Shown: positions 3,279-28,513 of the stretch, piece by piece | Numbering within the stretch: the first letter of the stretch is position 1 | Layout of the letters: every line of letters starts with the position of its first letter | NCBI RefSeq assembly: GCF_003288845.1 | Contig: NZ_NHYN01000014.1 | Span: forward strand, 1-43,407 | Origin: Helicobacter monodelphidis | GTDB lineage: Bacteria > Campylobacterota > Campylobacteria > Campylobacterales > Helicobacteraceae | Direction of reading: 5' to 3' | Length of the DNA: 43,407 bases | Translations under genes and position numbers: made by a program | The notes under the pieces: model-generated | What the model was told of the DNA's origin: nothing | The model's input: the letters and a program-made list of their open reading frames with translations, nothing else | Database searches by the model: none

Positions 3279-5081
3279 CTACTTAAAAGAATCTAGCTTT
3301 GTTGAAAGATTAGAAGCACCATTGAGAACATCGATTGAAATGTGATTAACTTCTGATGCAAATTGTTGCAAATTGTCTGCAATTTCTGTAACTTTTTGGA
3401 TATTACTTCCTAATTCTTCCATCTTTTCTTGTGCTTCAGTGCTTTTTTCTTCCATTGTTTCTGTGGATTGAATACCAATTTGTAGTTTTTCGATAGAAGT
3501 AACCATCTCTTCTTGCAAAATATTAGCTTTTTGGGTTGTTTCCCCCATTGAAGTGTGAATGCCATGCATTAAAGAAAGATTATTGTTGATTTGTTGTGTG
3601 ATGGTTGAAACGGTGTGGTTAATATCTGTAAGCGAAGTTGTTGTTTTTTCTGCTAGTTTGCGAATTTCATCAGCTACCACTGCAAAGCCTCTCCCGTGTT
3701 CTCCAGCTCTAGCAGCTTCAATAGCGGCGTTTAAAGCAAGTAGGTTTGTTTGGTCTGCAATATCTTTGATGGTGGTTGTAACAAGGATAATGCTATCAGC
3801 ACTTTGGGTAAGGAGATCCATATTTTGCATAATTGTTTCTTCTTTTTCCTTGTTTTCTGTAATGAGCTGGATTAATTCTTGTAAAGTCATTTTAACTTTA
3901 TTCATTGTTTCCTCTGTTCCATGCATATCGATAATGGTTTGGTGAGCAAGATTTTGCGTTAGGTCGATATGTTCGTCAAGAATCTTGCTAATTGCACTCA
4001 TATTATTAATTTGATGATATTGCAAGGAGGCAGATTCTTTGAGCGTATTTGCATTTTGTTGGAGCTTTTGGGAGTTGCTATGGCTTGCTTCAGCTGTTGA
4101 AATTGCTTCCATAATGGATTGTTCCACAATTTCAATAAAGCGGTTAATATAGTGTGCACTTTGTCCTAATTCACTTTTTGGGCTAATATTAAGTCTTGCG
4201 TGTAGATTGGCATTCTTACCAGCAAGATTTGCACTGAGATGTTCTAATTCTGTAATAGGGATAATGACCTTTTTAAGCGTTATGAAGATAAATGAAACTA
4301 AGGCAACAAGGCTAAAAATAAAAACACTAATCGCAAGAAAAAAGCTATTGCGACTATCAAGAGAAATTTGTTCCCTTTTCTCAAGGGAAAAACGTCTAAT
4401 CTCTTGAGAGAGCGTTTTTTTCAAGAAAAGGTTTGAGTTGAGTTGTAATTGATTTGCTTGAAAAATCATCATATTAAAGTGTGTAAGAAATAAATCTACA
4501 AGTTGTGTATCTAGAACATCTTTATTTACTGCGATAATCTGGATAAATTTTTGAAGTCGGCTTTGGGTTGATTCTTCTAAAATATCTTCTGTTGCAATAA
4601 TTGAAAGAATTGTATTGCTTGCTTCAATACCCGCCAAAGATTGGGGCGTTAAAACTTTATTGCGTAAAGAATCTGCAAGAGATTGATGAATTTTATACAA
4701 ATAAAGTTTTGAATTCATTGCAATTGCATTTGCTGATTTAAAACGTTCTAGCTCATAAGACTTTTGATGATAGATTGATTCAATGCTTTCTATATCTGTG
4801 CCTAAACTTTTTAGGGTATCAAGTGTTTCTTGGAATTTATGGCTAGCTTCAACGCTGGCATCAAAGTTAATGAAAGTGAGGCGATTTTTAAAAAATTCAT
4901 CTAATCGTGTATCTAAAGTTTCTAAATATTGCAAGTTCTGTAAGACTTTAATGTTTCTGTCTGAAGCAATATAGGTGTTTAGGACAAAAAATACAAGGGA
5001 TAAAACGAGGAGTAAAACAAGAATGGAGAGACCGATAAATTGTTTAAAAAATGAGAATCTTTTTTTATTGGTGAAGGGCAT
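3279..5081 (-). CDS. Methyl-accepting chemotaxis protein with long helical periplasmic domain
   Basis: This chemoreceptor has 600 residues. TM1 is at about 13-36 and TM2 at about 247-269, and between them lies a roughly 210-residue, mostly helical sensor domain without cysteines, resembling four-helix-bundle-type ligand binding modules. HAMP follows at about 270-325 and the signalling hairpin at about 438-480 ([20 protein letters not shown] then [16 protein letters not shown]). The ligand cannot be read from sequence. The start codon at 5081 lies 17 bases inside the end of the cytochrome c peroxidase gene, so the two are probably translationally coupled. The hairpin sequence is nearly the same as in the neighbouring receptor, while the sensor domains are unrelated, so the pair looks like two inputs into the same kinase. 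Confidence 0.94.
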
Positions 5082-23485: not shown

Positions 23486-23495
23486 GAAGATTCGC

Positions 23496-23519
23496 AGATT
23501 CTATATATTTATAGAATCT
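23496..23519. terminator. Bidirectional stem-loop terminator between convergent genes
   Basis: AGATTCTATA (23496-23505) and TATAGAATCT (23510-23519) pair perfectly over ten bases around the loop TATT. It lies between the acetyltransferase stop (23485) and overlaps the last codons of the minus-strand gene (stop at 23509-23511). No long T run follows on either strand, so efficiency is uncertain. The stem is built from the word AGATTCT, which is common in this part of the window. Confidence 0.6.
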
Positions 23520-24099
23520 CATACGCGTGGCACTCGGAATATATTTCGCCAGATTTATCATAGAAATAATCGCTCCCTAGCCCATCTTCTGTGATGATAT
23601 GCGTGATTTTTACACCATTTTTAAGAGTGAGATACACCACACCGCCCACACTTGTGCTACCCGGAGTAGCGGCTCTCACTAGAATCTTGCTCCCTTTGGG
23701 GAGAGAATGTGCTTCAAAAACTACTTTGCCCATTTCATGCCAATTTGCCCCATTATCCCCGCCATAGCCATGAGGAAACCAATCATCAACACTTGATTTA
23801 TCATTTTTGTGTCCTAGAATCTGTATACTTTTGATTGTCTCATTCAATTCTATCACTTCATAATCCACTCCCCACGAATTTGCCTTGACATAGGTTGCAT
23901 CACTATAATACTTCAGCACACCGCTTTCTCCGCCTGCCTCATCACCGCCATATTCCTTGATTATTTTGACTGCATACTGCTTTGCTTCAATCTGTGCTTC
24001 AGAGAGACACAAAGGCTCTGCCCACGCATAAAACACCATAATCCCAATAATCCCATAGAGGGCGAATATGAGTTTTAGACACTTTTTGAGAGTTTGCAT
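23509..24099 (-). CDS. Secreted protein of unknown function
   Basis: The 196-residue protein starts with a clear signal peptide (KK, hydrophobic LIFALYGIIGIMVFYAWA, cleavage likely near AWA-EP). The mature part begins PLCLSEAQIEAKQYAVKIIK and contains GGDEAGGESGV, DDWFPHGYGGDNGANW and an even spread of beta strands; one Cys near the start and one near the end may form a disulfide. I do not recognise a family. ATG 24099 is preferred over an upstream start at 24150 because it has AAGGAG at the right distance and starts the signal peptide directly. An inverted repeat at 24136-24152 lies just upstream. Confidence 0.72.
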   Translation of the reverse strand: MQTLKKCLKLIFALYGIIGIMVFYAWAEPLCLSEAQIEAKQYAVKIIKEYGGDEAGGESGVLKYYSDATYVKANSWGVDYEVIELNETIKSIQILGHKNDKSSVDDWFPHGYGGDNGANWHEMGKVVFEAHSLPKGSKILVRAATPGSTSVGGVVYLTLKNGVKITHIITEDGLGSDYFYDKSGEIYSECHAYEIL

Positions 24100-24135
24100 A
24101 CTTGCTCCTTGTAATGACTTTAATGACTTACAAAA

Positions 24136-24152
24136 TTGTGATTCTATCACAA
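24136..24152. promoter_or_regulatory. Perfect dyad TTGTGAT-TCT-ATCACAA, possible operator
   Basis: Seven-base arms around a three-base centre lie 37 to 53 bases upstream of the secreted-protein start codon. The arms recall CRP/FNR half sites, but the spacing between TGTGA and TCACA is five instead of six bases. It is a candidate operator, not a demonstrated one. Confidence 0.35.
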
Positions 24153-24202
24153 AACACGAGGAGAAATTATATCGTTTTTACCACTATGATTGAGTGTCGT
24201 AT

Positions 24203-24270
24203 CGTTTGGGCGGTGGTGAGTGAGAGGCTTCAACTTCACTTTTACCCCTACCCAAACGCGAGGCTTCAAC
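24203..24270. repeat. Structured intergenic stretch with inverted and direct repeats
   Basis: CGTTTGGG (24203-24210) pairs with CCCAAACG (24251-24258), and inside the loop AGTGA can pair with TCACT. GAGGCTTCAAC occurs twice, at 24224-24234 and 24260-24270. The stretch lies upstream of the promoter-like TATAAT of the type IIG enzyme. Its role is unknown. Confidence 0.35.
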
Positions 24271-24321
24271 AAAACACTTTTATGAATATCTAAGAAAGTA
24301 GCATTTAAATAAAATCCTTGT

Positions 24322-24327
24322 TATAAT
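24322..24327 (+). promoter_or_regulatory. Probable -10 box of the type IIG enzyme gene
   Basis: A TATAAT lies 31 bases before the GTG start, with a TAGGTAGGA ribosome binding site between. No clear -35 box is visible. Confidence 0.5.
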
Positions 24328-24358
24328 AGCAACTTGAGTAAATATGTAGGTAGGAATT

Positions 24359-27300
24359 GTGATTACAAAAGAAAATTTTAAAGCAAGTTTAGAATCTCTA
24401 GGATTTCAACACAATAATGATGAGGTGTATATAAAAATATTTGATGATTCAGAATGCGAACTACAAGCTGATTTTAAACACTCAAAGCTTCTTTATCCTA
24501 AGGGAATCATCATCAATGACGCGACTACAAGTAATTTTTCTAAACCTGAAAATTTTGTTGTCTTTGAATGTGTGCATAGACTTTTAGAAAAAGGCTACAA
24601 ACCACAGCATTTAGAGCTAGAGCCAAAATGGCAACTAGGCAGAGAGGCAAAAAGCGGCAAAGCTGATATTTTGGTCAAAGATAATGAGGGAAATTCCTAT
24701 TTGCTTATTGAGTGCAAAACCACAGATTCTAAAAATAGTGAATTTAAAAAAGAGTGGGAGCGAATGCAAAACAATGGCGGACAGCTTCTCTCATACTATC
24801 AGCAAGATAAAAATGTCAAATTCCTTTGTCTTTATACGAGTGATTTTAATGGGGAAAATATTATTTTTGAAAATTATATTTTAAATATGCAAGACAATGA
24901 AGATTATTTAAGAAAAAATGATTTTAAAGATTCATACAAAAACGCTAATACGAATGAGGAAGTTTTTAAAGTTTGGAGCGAGATTTATAAATATGATGCT
25001 TCAAGCATTGGAATCTTTGAGCGAAATATCAATGCCTATGAAGTAGGAAAAAATGCTCTTTGTTTCGAGGACTTAAAAGAATTGCAATCTTTTAAAGATG
25101 ATTCTAAAAAACACGAAGATGGCAAATATCACGAATTTGCAAAAATCTTGCGAAAGTATAATATTTCAGGCAAAGAAAATGCCTTTGATAAGCTTGTCAA
25201 TCTCTTTTTATGTAAAATCTATGATGAGATTCACAATAAAAATAATCTCAAATTTGTTTATCGTGGCGTGATTGCAGATAGCTTTGAGGATATGCAAGAT
25301 AGATTAATGTTGCTTTATAAAGAGGCGATGAGCGAGTTTTTAAAAGAAGAGGTAACCTTTATCGCAGATGAGACGATAGAAAAGGCTTTTAGTGCGTTAA
25401 ATCATAATAAAAAGAGCATTTCAAGCTTGGAAAGCGAAGTCAAAGGATTTATTAAAGCATTGAAATTTTATTCAAACAATGATTTTGCATTTTTGGAAGT
25501 GCATAATGAGGAGCTTTTTTATCAAAATGCCTTAGTGCTTATATCGGTTGTGAAGCTTTTTGAGAATCTCAAGCTTACCCAAAACAAAACCAATCAATTC
25601 TTAGGCAATCTTTTTGAACTCTTTTTACAAAAAGGTATGAAGCAAGATGAGGGGCAGTTTTTTACCCCTGTGCAAATTTGTGAGTTTATAATGTATTCTT
25701 TGCCCTTGCAAGATTATATTGATACAAAGATTCCAAAAGTGCTTGATTATGCGTGTGGAGCGGGGCATTTTCTCAATACTTATGCGAATTTTTTGCAAGA
25801 GTTCTGCAAAAAAGAAAATGTAAAAGAATATTTTTCTCAAATCTATGGCATAGAAAAAGAATATCGTTTAAGCAAAGTTGCCAAAGTCTCAAGCTGTATG
25901 TATGGGCAAAATGAGATAAATATCCTCTATGCAGACGCACTCTCAAGCGATGCGTTAGAATCTAAGATGAATAATTTTAGCTTTGATATACTTGTTGCCA
26001 ATCCTCCTTATAGTGTGCAAGGCTTTTTAGAGACTTTGAGCGAAAAATCACGCAAAAGCTATACGCTTTTTAGTCAGCAAATAAATTTAGAGACGAATAA
26101 CAATATCGAATGCTTTTTTATCGAGCGAGCCAATCAGCTTTTAGACGATAAGGCTATCACGGCTATTATTTTACCCTCTTCACTCCTCAATAAAAGCGGG
26201 ATTTATGAGCAAGCTAGAGAAATTATCCTCCAAAACTTTGATATTATCTCTATTGTGGAGCTAGGGAGCAATACTTTTGGTGCGACAGGGACAAACACGA
26301 TTATTTTATTTATGCAAAAGCGAATAAGTTTTAAAAATGATAGGTTACATTCACAAAGATTGAAACTCATTCAAGAGAGATTAGACTATGAAAATCTCAT
26401 CAATAATGATAATTTTAAAGAAAATGATTTATTAGAATCTTATATAAGTTATAGAGGTTTTGAGCCAGAATCTTACAAATCATTTTTAGATTCTATATTG
26501 AGCGATGAGATATTAGAAAATGAAAATTTCAAAGAATACAAGCAAGAATTTCTTAAAAGTGCCTCATATAAAAAGCTCAAAGATTCTAAGATTTATAAAG
26601 ATTGTGAGGATAAAAAAGCCTTAGAGGAGAAAGAATTTGTCCATTTTTGCCTTGAGAGAGAGAAAGAAAAATTGCTTTACTTTGCTTTGAGTATAGAAAA
26701 TGAAGTGCTGATTATCAAATCTCCTAGTGAAAATAAAGAGCAAAAGAAATTCTTAGGCTATGAATGGAGTGATAGAAAGGGCAGTGAGGGGCTTAAAGAG
26801 CTAAACACCCCATATCTCACACCACTTTTTGAAAGGGGCAATCCAGATAATCAAAACAAGCTTAGCTTTCTCATCAAACAAAGCTTTTTGAGAAATGAAT
26901 TTGAGATTCCAAATGATTTGACACAATACGCAAGTAGGGCAAGGCTTGTAGATATGATAGATTTTAGCAAAGTAGAGTTTGATAAGGCGATAAGTTTAAG
27001 TCCTTCGCGGTCATTGCGAGGCGAAGCCGAAGCAATCCATAATCCTTTTGTAAATTATAGGTATCCGTTGGTGAAGTTAGAATCTATTTGTAAAATGTAT
27101 CAGCCAAAAACTATTACTAGCACAGAAATTTTAGAACAAGGAAAATACAAAGTTTATGGAGCTAACGGAATTATTGGATACTTCAATGAATATAATCACA
27201 AAGATTCTGAAGTAGCTATGACTTGTAGAGGTGCAACTTGTGGAACTATTAATTTTACAGAACCAGAGTCTTGGATAACAGGAAATGCTATGGTTATTTC

Positions 27301-28513
27301 GCCATTAAACTCAAAAGAAGTTTTAAAGAAATTTTTAATTTATATTCTACCTTTATCAAATATTTCACACATTATTACAGGGTCAGCACAGCCACAAATT
27401 ACAAAAACAAATTTATCACAATTAAAAATCCCCCTTCCACCGCTTGAGATTCAACAACAAATCGTGAGCGAATGCGAAAAGATAGAAGAGCAATACAAAA
27501 CAATAAGAATGAGCATAGAAGAATATCAAAATCTTATCAAAGCAATCCTCGTAAATTGTGGTGTCATCGCCCAAGACTCTATCGGGGGGGGGGTGGGGAA
27601 TCCTCCTCGTAGCGTAGATTCTATTGTAGCAAAGTTAGAAAAACTCACCAAAGAGCTTATAGATTTTTCTCTAAAGTCGCTTGAGCTATCATCACAAGAT
27701 GAAGCCAAAACTTTTTACAATAACACAAACAACGATATTACTGACTCGTCATTGCGAGGCAAAGCCGAAGCAATCCATAATAAAAATATAATATTAGGCG
27801 AACGCAAAATATCCGAAAACGCAAACAATGGATTGCCACGATTTGCCAATGCAAATCTCACAATGGCACAAAAACAACAAAAAGACGACTTTAACACCTT
27901 AAAAAGCCTCTTAGAATCTCTACCCACTCCACCACCACAAGGCTGGGAGAAACAAAAACTCATAAATCTTTGCAAAATTAATGAAAAAACCTATAATCCA
28001 AGCTATGATACAAGCAAAGAATACATTTATATTGATATTGATTCTGTGGAAAAAGGCACAGGAAAATTTTTTACTGACAATAGAATATTAGGCTCAAATT
28101 TACCAACAAGGGCTAGACGATTAGCTGATGATGATAGCGTGTTGATTTCAACGGTGCGACCATATCTTAAAGGATTTGCATATATTAAAGAAAATATCAA
28201 AGATTCTATTTTCTCAACAGGATTTGCCATTCTTAAGGGCAATGAAAAGTTGGAATCTAAATTCCTCTATATTCTTTTTATGTTTTCAAACGATTTAATG
28301 CGACAAATAGAAGAAAAAATGCCAAAAGCTTCATATCCAAGCATTAATGTTGATGATATTAAAACATTTCAAATCCCGCTCCCGCCAAAAGAAGCACAAG
28401 ATACAATCGTGCAAACTATTGACTTTATAGAATCTCAAGTCTCATATTTACTATCAAATGAAATCCTATTGAGCGAGAAAAAAGAAGAAATATTAAGGGA
28501 ATTTCTCTATTGA
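24359..28513 (+). CDS. Phase-variable type IIG-like restriction-modification enzyme
   Basis: A single 1384-residue chain combines nuclease, N6-adenine methylase and specificity parts. A PD-(D/E)xK nuclease is visible at about 85-122 (D103, E118-C-K120 in LLIECK). The HsdM-like methylase follows: QDEGQFFTPVQIC, motif I D463-YACGAGHF and motif IV N548-P-P-Y551. Two HsdS-like recognition domains come last: about 900-1060 (VYGANGIIGYF, GSAQPQITKTNLSQLKIPLP) and about 1190-1384 (TVRPYLKGFAYI, ASYPSINVDDIKTFQIPLP). Ten G at 27584-27593 (residues 1076-1078) lie between them; loss or gain of one G gives a stop within about 12 codons, removing the second domain. Two in-frame copies of a 34-bp repeat precede the domains. 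The start is GTG 24359. Confidence 0.93.
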   Translation: MITKENFKASLESLGFQHNNDEVYIKIFDDSECELQADFKHSKLLYPKGIIINDATTSNFSKPENFVVFECVHRLLEKGYKPQHLELEPKWQLGREAKSGKADILVKDNEGNSYLLIECKTTDSKNSEFKKEWERMQNNGGQLLSYYQQDKNVKFLCLYTSDFNGENIIFENYILNMQDNEDYLRKNDFKDSYKNANTNEEVFKVWSEIYKYDASSIGIFERNINAYEVGKNALCFEDLKELQSFKDDSKKHEDGKYHEFAKILRKYNISGKENAFDKLVNLFLCKIYDEIHNKNNLKFVYRGVIADSFEDMQDRLMLLYKEAMSEFLKEEVTFIADETIEKAFSALNHNKKSISSLESEVKGFIKALKFYSNNDFAFLEVHNEELFYQNALVLISVVKLFENLKLTQNKTNQFLGNLFELFLQKGMKQDEGQFFTPVQICEFIMYSLPLQDYIDTKIPKVLDYACGAGHFLNTYANFLQEFCKKENVKEYFSQIYGIEKEYRLSKVAKVSSCMYGQNEINILYADALSSDALESKMNNFSFDILVANPPYSVQGFLETLSEKSRKSYTLFSQQINLETNNNIECFFIERANQLLDDKAITAIILPSSLLNKSGIYEQAREIILQNFDIISIVELGSNTFGATGTNTIILFMQKRISFKNDRLHSQRLKLIQERLDYENLINNDNFKENDLLESYISYRGFEPESYKSFLDSILSDEILENENFKEYKQEFLKSASYKKLKDSKIYKDCEDKKALEEKEFVHFCLEREKEKLLYFALSIENEVLIIKSPSENKEQKKFLGYEWSDRKGSEGLKELNTPYLTPLFERGNPDNQNKLSFLIKQSFLRNEFEIPNDLTQYASRARLVDMIDFSKVEFDKAISLSPSRSLRGEAEAIHNPFVNYRYPLVKLESICKMYQPKTITSTEILEQGKYKVYGANGIIGYFNEYNHKDSEVAMTCRGATCGTINFTEPESWITGNAMVISPLNSKEVLKKFLIYILPLSNISHIITGSAQPQITKTNLSQLKIPLPPLEIQQQIVSECEKIEEQYKTIRMSIEEYQNLIKAILVNCGVIAQDSIGGGVGNPPRSVDSIVAKLEKLTKELIDFSLKSLELSSQDEAKTFYNNTNNDITDSSLRGKAEAIHNKNIILGERKISENANNGLPRFANANLTMAQKQQKDDFNTLKSLLESLPTPPPQGWEKQKLINLCKINEKTYNPSYDTSKEYIYIDIDSVEKGTGKFFTDNRILGSNLPTRARRLADDDSVLISTVRPYLKGFAYIKENIKDSIFSTGFAILKGNEKLESKFLYILFMFSNDLMRQIEEKMPKASYPSINVDDIKTFQIPLPPKEAQDTIVQTIDFIESQVSYLLSNEILLSEKKEEILREFLY
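27010..27043 (+). repeat. Palindromic-type repeat element, copy 1, inside the type IIG gene
   Basis: This 34-base unit begins GTCATTGCGAGGCGAAGC and ends GAAGCAATCCATAAT. It matches copy 2 at all but one position. Its ends, CATTGC and GCAATCC, are partly complementary. In the protein it encodes SLRGEAEAIHN, residues about 885-895, just before the first recognition domain. Similar ATTGCGAGG...GAAGCAATCC elements are dispersed in several bacterial genomes. Confidence 0.85.
27584..27593 (+). repeat. G10 homopolymeric tract, phase-variation switch
   Basis: Ten consecutive G inside the coding sequence, followed by T and four more G. In the present state the frame is open (residues GGG then VG). 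With nine G the frame reads WGILLVA then TAG; with eleven it reads GGESSS then TAG. Poly-G tracts in restriction genes are established contingency switches in Helicobacter and Campylobacter. Confidence 0.9.
27748..27781 (+). repeat. Palindromic-type repeat element, copy 2, inside the type IIG gene
   Basis: It differs from copy 1 by one base (A for G at 27761) and encodes SLRGKAEAIHN, about residues 1131-1141, in the same frame of the element. It lies 738 bases (246 codons) after copy 1. About 50 bases on, ATGGATTGCCACG and the following CTCACAATGG look like a degenerate inverted partner arm. Confidence 0.85.

What the first reader, a model, noticed from the sequence alone, without database searches (positions are those of the whole stretch)
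27584..27593. G10 tract makes the second recognition domain of a type IIG enzyme switchable
Unlike tracts near the start that switch the whole gene off, this one lies between the two recognition domains. G9 or G11 ends the protein at about residue 1086, keeping nuclease, methylase and first domain. The switch could change sequence specificity or separate functions, rather than simply ON/OFF, and could alter the methylome in subpopulations.
Basis: partly seen in the sequence, partly recalled or inferred. Interest (0 to 1): 0.72.

Follow-up and report, generated by a model that had tools for sequence, protein, structure and literature searches.

The report
Slippery G-tract toggling a restriction enzyme's specificity
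A run of ten Gs sits between the two DNA-reading domains of a one-piece restriction-methylation enzyme from a Helicobacter-like bacterium, so gaining or losing one G would cut off the second reading domain and probably change which DNA sequence the enzyme marks and cuts; this trick is already proven in a related H. pylori enzyme, but relatives of this one carry it repeatedly, sometimes as a chain of three reading domains with a slippery repeat after each non-terminal one.

Summary
G10 (27584-27593) is the only G/C run of 8 or more in the window. It lies in frame in a 1,384-aa single-chain nuclease-methylase-specificity (RMS) enzyme, between two HsdS-like recognition domains. G9 or G11 stops translation at 1,085 or 1,084 aa, keeping nuclease, methylase, TRD1 and its CR1 helix. 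The enzyme is a homologue of Cj1051c (CjeI/CjeNII, bipartite GAGN5GT). In the AlphaFold model the tract is a disordered loop at the CR1 exit, where a natural single-TRD methylase (PDB 7eew) ends. Across 41 homologues, 16 of 19 internal G/C runs of 8 or more fall at this site; four of these genes also have a start-of-gene tract. New here: the switch inside a single-chain RMS enzyme, its recurrence across a family, and relatives with a third TRD behind a second repeat, (GA)n or G14. Not shown: length variation in this organism, or activity of the truncated form; one published half-S construct was inactive. Plain ON/OFF remains the main rival.

The parts
24359..28513 (+). Single-chain restriction-methylation-specificity (RMS) gene, 1384 aa, GTG start
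   Evidence: PADLOC REase_MTase_IIG E=0 over aa 2-1094
24569..24742 (+). N-terminal nuclease core (HSDR_N_2, aa 71-128)
   Evidence: Pfam PF13588 25.4 bits, just above cut-off 25; aligns to RM.BsaXI N-terminus
25592..26539 (+). N6-adenine methyltransferase domain (aa 412-727), with NPPY
   Evidence: Pfam PF02384 E=1e-29; NPPY visible
27059..27559 (+). TRD1 plus CR1 helix (aa 901-1067)
   Evidence: Family HMM E=3e-54; Methylase_S; AF2 helix at model 140-177
27584..27593 (+). G10 tract; encodes the Gly loop around aa 1076-1078 at the CR1 exit
   Evidence: pLDDT <50 at model residues 187-192
27610..27612 (+). TAG that ends the G11 (and G8) product, 1084 (1083) aa
   Evidence: read
27615..27617 (+). 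TAG that ends the G9 (and G12) product, 1085 (1086) aa
   Evidence: read
27923..28504 (+). TRD2 plus CR2, present only in the full-length frame
   Evidence: Family HMM E=6e-49
27010..27043 (+). 34-bp dispersed repeat (copy 1), in frame, just before TRD1
27748..27781 (+). 34-bp dispersed repeat (copy 2), in frame, before TRD2; 738 bp (246 codons) from copy 1

Best explanation
A fast specificity switch. Slippage at the G10 tract decides whether the single-chain RMS enzyme carries TRD1 and TRD2 (G7, G10, G13) or stops right after TRD1-CR1 (all other lengths). Full length reads an asymmetric bipartite site, as its Cj1051c homologues do. The truncated RM-TRD1-CR1 chain probably pairs with a second copy through CR1 and reads a palindromic site made of two TRD1 half-sites, remaining a methylase and probably a nuclease. 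Shown: tract, frames, product ends, domain order, recurrence of the site. Inferred: slippage in this organism, dimerisation, activity and the new motif.
For: (1) Truncated products keep all of the nuclease, methylase, TRD1 and CR1. (2) AF2 model of the S part: CR1 helix 140-177, then the tract in a loop with pLDDT <50 at 187-192. PDB 7eew, an intact M enzyme with one fused TRD, aligns to model 10-179 through its residue 631 (chain of 638; Z 17.6), so a natural single-TRD form ends where the tract truncates. (3) In 41 homologues, 16 of 19 internal G/C runs of 8 or more fall in the 150 bp at the CR1 exit, against 3.4% expected (binomial p about 3e-21, inflated by relatedness); presence changes at least 11 times on the RM tree. 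(4) Four homologues also carry a start-of-gene tract, which would make a second ON/OFF switch redundant. (5) Both wrong frames close within 10 codons after the tract in all 16, median 5 against 12 at random places. (6) Three homologues with the tract out of frame keep intact 1,129-1,211-aa RM-TRD1 ORFs, and one without the tract is fixed in the truncated form with an intact 1,164-aa ORF. (7) Experiments on related designs: HpyUM032XIII (PMC4450513), NgoAV (PMC9577141), BsaXI TRD1-CR1 gives ACN5GT (PMC9159934).
Against: No reads or isogenic clones were available, so length variation here is unproven. A single-TRD construct can be dead: TRD1 alone of JHP1422 did not modify the expected palindrome (PMC3936762). 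In the precedents the S chain is separate from RM; here TRD1 stays tethered to RM, which might hinder pairing. 12 of 16 tract alleles are in frame for TRD2 (1/3 expected, p=8e-4), so the full-length state seems preferred. More than half of the homologues lack the tract.
Confidence: 0.62

Rival explanations
1. Plain ON/OFF phase variation: the truncated enzyme is inactive or unstable, and the tract simply switches the whole enzyme, nuclease and methylase together.
For: Cj0031, another Type IIG with an internal tract, behaves as ON/OFF (PMC4889913). JHP1422 TRD1 alone showed no expected activity (PMC3936762). Full-length frames are over-represented among tract alleles.
Against: ON/OFF tracts need no particular position, yet 16 of 19 internal runs sit at the CR1 exit; four genes have a start tract as well. 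The truncation leaves a complete TRD1-CR1 module of the kind active in BsaXI and HpyUM032XIII. Truncated-frame alleles keep intact RM-TRD1 ORFs.
Confidence: 0.27
2. The tract is a constant, harmless glycine linker in this organism: no significant slippage, always full length.
For: Only one assembly, in frame. More than half of the homologues do without the tract.
Against: A glycine linker does not need an uninterrupted run of G; length varies G8-G33 among homologues and 4 of 16 are out of frame. In H. didelphidarum, whose DNA is 97.7% identical up to the tract, both contigs break exactly there although G15-G16 tracts elsewhere were assembled.
Confidence: 0.06
3. Fission: out-of-frame lengths give RM-TRD1 plus a separately started TRD2 polypeptide that works in trans, as in RM plus S enzymes.
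For: In some homologues an open frame with possible starts precedes TRD2; in three-TRD relatives the part behind the tract is a whole S-like module.
Against: Start codons found near TRD2 are mostly GTG/TTG without a clear ribosome site (by inspection). In HpyUM032XIII S2 gave no activity alone and was not needed (PMC4450513).
Confidence: 0.05

Closest known systems
HpyUM032XIII of H. pylori UM032 (BcgI-like Type IIG; PMC4450513)
   Same: Homopolymeric G tract at the junction of two TRDs; one length gives a single TRD, another fuses two; specificity changes from palindromic CYAN7TRG to CYAN7TTC.
   Different: S is a separate gene there; here TRD1 is fused to the RM chain, so truncation yields an RM-TRD1 protein, not a separate half-S. 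Motifs of the window enzyme are unknown.
NgoAV hsdS of N. gonorrhoeae (Type I; PMC9577141)
   Same: Poly-G at the end of the first half of hsdS; truncated form reads GCAN8TGC, fused form GCAN7STCA.
   Different: Type I with separate HsdM and HsdR; not a Type IIG enzyme.
Cj1051c (CjeI / CjeNII) family of Campylobacter
   Same: Homologous single-chain RMS enzyme, about 50% identity (best tblastn segment), at the murC-mutS2-X-sir2-dapE locus of C. jejuni/C. coli relatives that also carry G9 at the same site; bipartite motif GAGN5GT or GAGN5RTG (PMC4294202). Family already catalogued as phase variable in 22 genomes (PMC6321876).
   Different: Where the tract lies and what truncation does was not stated in the passages I read.
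JHP1272 / HP1353-HP1354 of H. pylori (PMC3936762)
   Same: Type IIG gene whose downstream tract changes specificity (GGWTAA to GGWCNA) rather than switching it off.
   Different: MmeI-like enzyme with a small extra C-terminal recognition domain; a first tract gives ON/OFF. The window gene has no first tract.
BsaXI (Type IIB; PMC9159934, PMC11997821)
   Same: RM and two HsdS-like TRDs; removing TRD2-CR2 gives active enzyme with ACN5GT.
   Different: Engineered, S separate, no repeat tract.

Membership tests
Cj1051c/CjeI-type single-chain Type IIG (IIB-like) RMS enzymes | N-terminal HsdR-like nuclease domain | tested here: met
   HSDR_N_2 25.4 bits vs cut-off 25; PADLOC REase_MTase_IIG E=0
Cj1051c/CjeI-type single-chain Type IIG (IIB-like) RMS enzymes | Gamma-type N6-adenine methylase with NPPY | tested here: met
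   PF02384 E=1e-29; NPPY in sequence
Cj1051c/CjeI-type single-chain Type IIG (IIB-like) RMS enzymes | Two HsdS-like TRD-CR units fused behind the methylase | tested here: met
   Family HMM; AF2 model matches HsdS structures, best Z 17-20
Cj1051c/CjeI-type single-chain Type IIG (IIB-like) RMS enzymes | Sequence relation to the Cj1051c locus | tested here: met
   C. jejuni GP013 homologue, 50% identity, flanked by murC, mutS2, sir2-like, dapE; that this locus is Cj1051c rests on my knowledge of the gene order
Cj1051c/CjeI-type single-chain Type IIG (IIB-like) RMS enzymes | Methylation of a bipartite site and cleavage outside it | not testable with these tools
   Needs methylome or enzyme assay
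Poly-G specificity-switch systems (HpyUM032XIII / NgoAV kind) | G tract at the TRD1-TRD2 junction | tested here: met
Poly-G specificity-switch systems (HpyUM032XIII / NgoAV kind) | Truncated form keeps complete TRD1-CR1 | tested here: met
Poly-G specificity-switch systems (HpyUM032XIII / NgoAV kind) | Separate S gene split by the tract | tested here: not met
   S is fused to RM in one ORF; so it works like these systems but is not a BcgI-like RM+S member
Poly-G specificity-switch systems (HpyUM032XIII / NgoAV kind) | Tract length differs between cells or strains | tested here: inconclusive
   No reads; between-species variation G8-G33 and 4 of 16 out of frame; contig break at the tract in H. 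didelphidarum
Poly-G specificity-switch systems (HpyUM032XIII / NgoAV kind) | Truncated form active with another specificity | not testable with these tools
   Needs expression and methylome
Cj0031-type phase-variable Type IIG (TaqI_C recognition domain) | TaqI_C-like recognition domain | tested here: not met
   Pfam shows two Methylase_S stretches and no TaqI_C hit at E up to 1

The most novel reading that the evidence does not exclude
The window gene is the two-domain member of a family built as a ladder: nuclease-methylase-TRD1-[G]n-TRD2-[GA]n or [G]n-TRD3, with a slippery repeat at the exit of each non-terminal CR helix. Independent slippage at each repeat gives one-, two- or three-TRD enzymes from one gene, that is, a combinatorial, heritable dial of DNA specificity, on top of slower replacement of TRD2 by recombination.
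Probability: 0.35. Interest if true: 0.72.

Novelty: new variant of a known kind. Interest (0 to 1): 0.55.

Why it matters
If the truncated form is active, one slippage event swaps one genome-wide methylation pattern and restriction barrier for another instead of switching the enzyme off. It would extend the mechanism shown in H. pylori HpyUM032XIII to single-chain enzymes, makes a testable prediction for many Helicobacter and Campylobacter species including the studied Cj1051c family, and warns that annotations calling such genes 'frameshifted' may be discarding working alleles.

Tried and rejected
Chance tract: rejected (shuffles). Tract as ancestral glycine linker: rejected, tract-free homologues have other residues at the site, for example L102 GIVDSSESSRDF against L112/L121 GIVDSSEGGGSRDF. 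Type I system: no, nuclease and methylase are one chain. 'Separate functions' (nuclease versus methylase uncoupled by the tract): rejected, both are upstream. Same-species length variants: looked for in plasmids (only distant Lactobacillus and Mycoplasmopsis relatives) and in viral contigs (none); the genome collections hold one genome per species, so none were found. Contig breaks at the tract as proof of heterogeneity: kept only as weak evidence, because one or two other contig ends in these drafts also carry G runs (L118, L132).

Full report
1. The observation. It lies in frame in a 1,384-aa ORF, 24359-28513. Changing the length by one ends the protein at 1,085 (G9) or 1,084 (G11) residues; G8 and G12 do the same at 1,083 and 1,086; G7 restores the full frame.

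2. What the gene is. Pfam finds an HsdR-like N-terminal nuclease segment (aa 71-128, barely above cut-off), an N6-adenine methylase (412-727) and two Methylase_S stretches; PADLOC calls it a Type IIG enzyme with E=0 over 2-1094. Relatives with solved structures include RM.BsaXI (Type IIB) and 7eew, an intact methylase with one fused TRD. A family HMM puts TRD1-CR1 at 27059-27559 and TRD2-CR2 at 27923-28504. The C. jejuni and C. coli homologues (about 50% identity) sit between mutS2 and a sir2-like gene with murC and dapE nearby, which from my knowledge of the gene order is the Cj1051c locus (CjeI, CjeNII), whose products methylate bipartite sites GAGN5GT or GAGN5RTG (PMC4294202). PhasomeIt lists the cj1051c group as phase variable in 22 genomes (PMC6321876) without, in the passages I read, saying where the tract lies or what it does.

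3. Structure. An AlphaFold2 model of aa 890-1384 (20-sequence alignment, mean pLDDT 79) shows TRD1, the CR1 helix (model 140-177), a disordered stretch at 187-192 that is the tract-encoded glycine loop, another helix, a disordered linker, TRD2 and CR2. The model matches HsdS-type subunits (PacII S Z 19.8, M. genitalium S 19.2, 1yf2 S 18.0, BsaXI S 12.0) and 7eew over model 10-179, ending at chain residue 631 (sequence length 638; Z 17.6). So the truncated product ends where a natural single-TRD methylase ends. The BsaXI TRD1-CR1 construct that gave a new specificity ends at about the same point (233 aa; the HMM alignment reaches BsaXI residue 213 at HMM position 180 of 196; with PMC9159934).

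4. The family. I mapped 41 homologues of the RM part, mostly Helicobacteraceae, with a self-built TRD HMM. Of 19 internal G/C runs of 8 or more, 16 lie at the CR1 exit, right after the conserved motif IEEYQ-LIKAIL-KC-GI (expected 3.4% of length; p about 3e-21, but the genes are related and the site was defined after looking). Two further genes near contig ends (L124, L134) also have it. Nine genes have a tract at the start of the gene; four have both (H. cinaedi CCUG 18818 L105, and L112, L121, L129). Presence of the CR1-exit tract needs at least 11 changes on the RM tree. Near-identical linkers with and without the tract exist (L102 against L112/L121). In all 16, both wrong frames close within 10 codons, median 5, against 12 at random places in the same genes (p 3e-6). 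Twelve of 16 are in frame for TRD2; four are not (L105, L116, L125, L127). L105, L116 and L127 keep intact RM-TRD1 frames of 1,211, 1,129 and 1,165 aa; L130, sister of L127, has no tract and is fixed in the truncated frame with 1,164 aa.

5. A ladder in the relatives. About 15 homologues have a third TRD or the junction for one, several as single ORFs of 1,600-1,730 aa. In all 15 a (GA)n run of 10-29 bp sits just behind CR2, between TRD2 and TRD3; it is out of frame in five (L100, L103, L116, L126, L131). H. didelphidarum uses G14 there instead. Thus a slippery repeat tends to follow each TRD that is not the last. Three-TRD S subunits are known in Type I: JHP1422 has dual specificity (PMC3936762), and the DOMO work describes TRD gain and loss by recombination (PMC3077401). 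I found no description of repeats separating three TRDs in Type IIG enzymes, but the library is partial.

6. Nearest copy. H. didelphidarum (another GTDB genus in these collections) has a 97.7% identical DNA stretch from 23495 to 27582, then a contig end; the next contig starts at 27595. Both contigs thus break exactly at the tract, while tracts of G15-G16 elsewhere in that genome were assembled. This hints at length heterogeneity but could be an assembly problem. Beyond 27958 TRD2 is a different sequence and a third TRD follows, while CR2 and the 3' end are 95% identical again: TRD2 appears to be swapped by recombination.

7. Mechanism. Best reading: slippage toggles between a two-TRD enzyme reading an asymmetric bipartite site and a one-TRD enzyme that pairs through CR1 and reads a palindrome. 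This was shown for HpyUM032XIII in H. pylori (S1 only CYAN7TRG at 99.96% of sites; fused S1-S2 CYAN7TTC; PMC4450513), for NgoAV (GCAN8TGC against GCAN7STCA; PMC9577141) and by engineering for BsaXI (ACN5GT; PMC9159934). JHP1272 and HP1353-54 show a different specificity switch by a second tract in Type IIG (PMC3936762). The main doubt is that not every half works: JHP1422 TRD1 alone was silent at the expected site. Plain ON/OFF, as in Cj0031 (PMC4889913), therefore remains the leading rival.

8. Verdict. Real feature; a new variant (single-chain RMS, recurrent, sometimes laddered) of a known kind. The window alone is one more case; the family pattern raises the interest.

Noticed in passing
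L067:1930-3180 (own genome, contig C46), G9 at L067:2501-2509: A separate Type I hsdS in the same genome also has a G9 tract between its two TRDs, in frame; loss or gain of one G ends it 5-7 codons later, as in NgoAV. An hsdM-like ORF lies upstream and an hsdR-like ORF downstream.
   Followed up: partly
window 27010-27043 and 27748-27781: Two in-frame copies of a 34-bp dispersed repeat (GTCATTGCGAGGCGAAGCCGAAGCAATCCATAAT) flank TRD1, 738 bp = 246 codons apart; recombination between them would delete TRD1 and the tract in frame. More copies occur elsewhere in this genome and in H. didelphidarum.
   Followed up: partly
turned loci L100:4984-5001, L113:5003-5024, L115:4761-4786, L119:4609-4629 and others: (GA)n dinucleotide repeats of 10-29 bp between TRD2 and TRD3 in 15 relatives; out of frame in five.
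   Followed up: yes
L066 (reverse strand), G14 at 911-924 of the turned sequence: H. didelphidarum allele has TRD2, then G14, then a third TRD, and a different TRD2 from the window within an otherwise about 95% identical 3' end.
   Followed up: yes
L118, G33 at 4021-4053 of the turned sequence: A G33 tract at the CR1 exit, in frame, unusually long for a homopolymer; may be partly an assembly effect.
   Followed up: no
L067:1402-1875: A short hsdS-like ORF with one TRD, ending in dispersed-repeat sequence, lies just upstream of the full hsdS; possible broken or donor S gene.
   Followed up: no
own genome contigs C40 and C44: Clusters of four and seven G tracts of 8 or more within about 8 and 13 kb, likely phase-variable gene clusters.
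   Followed up: no
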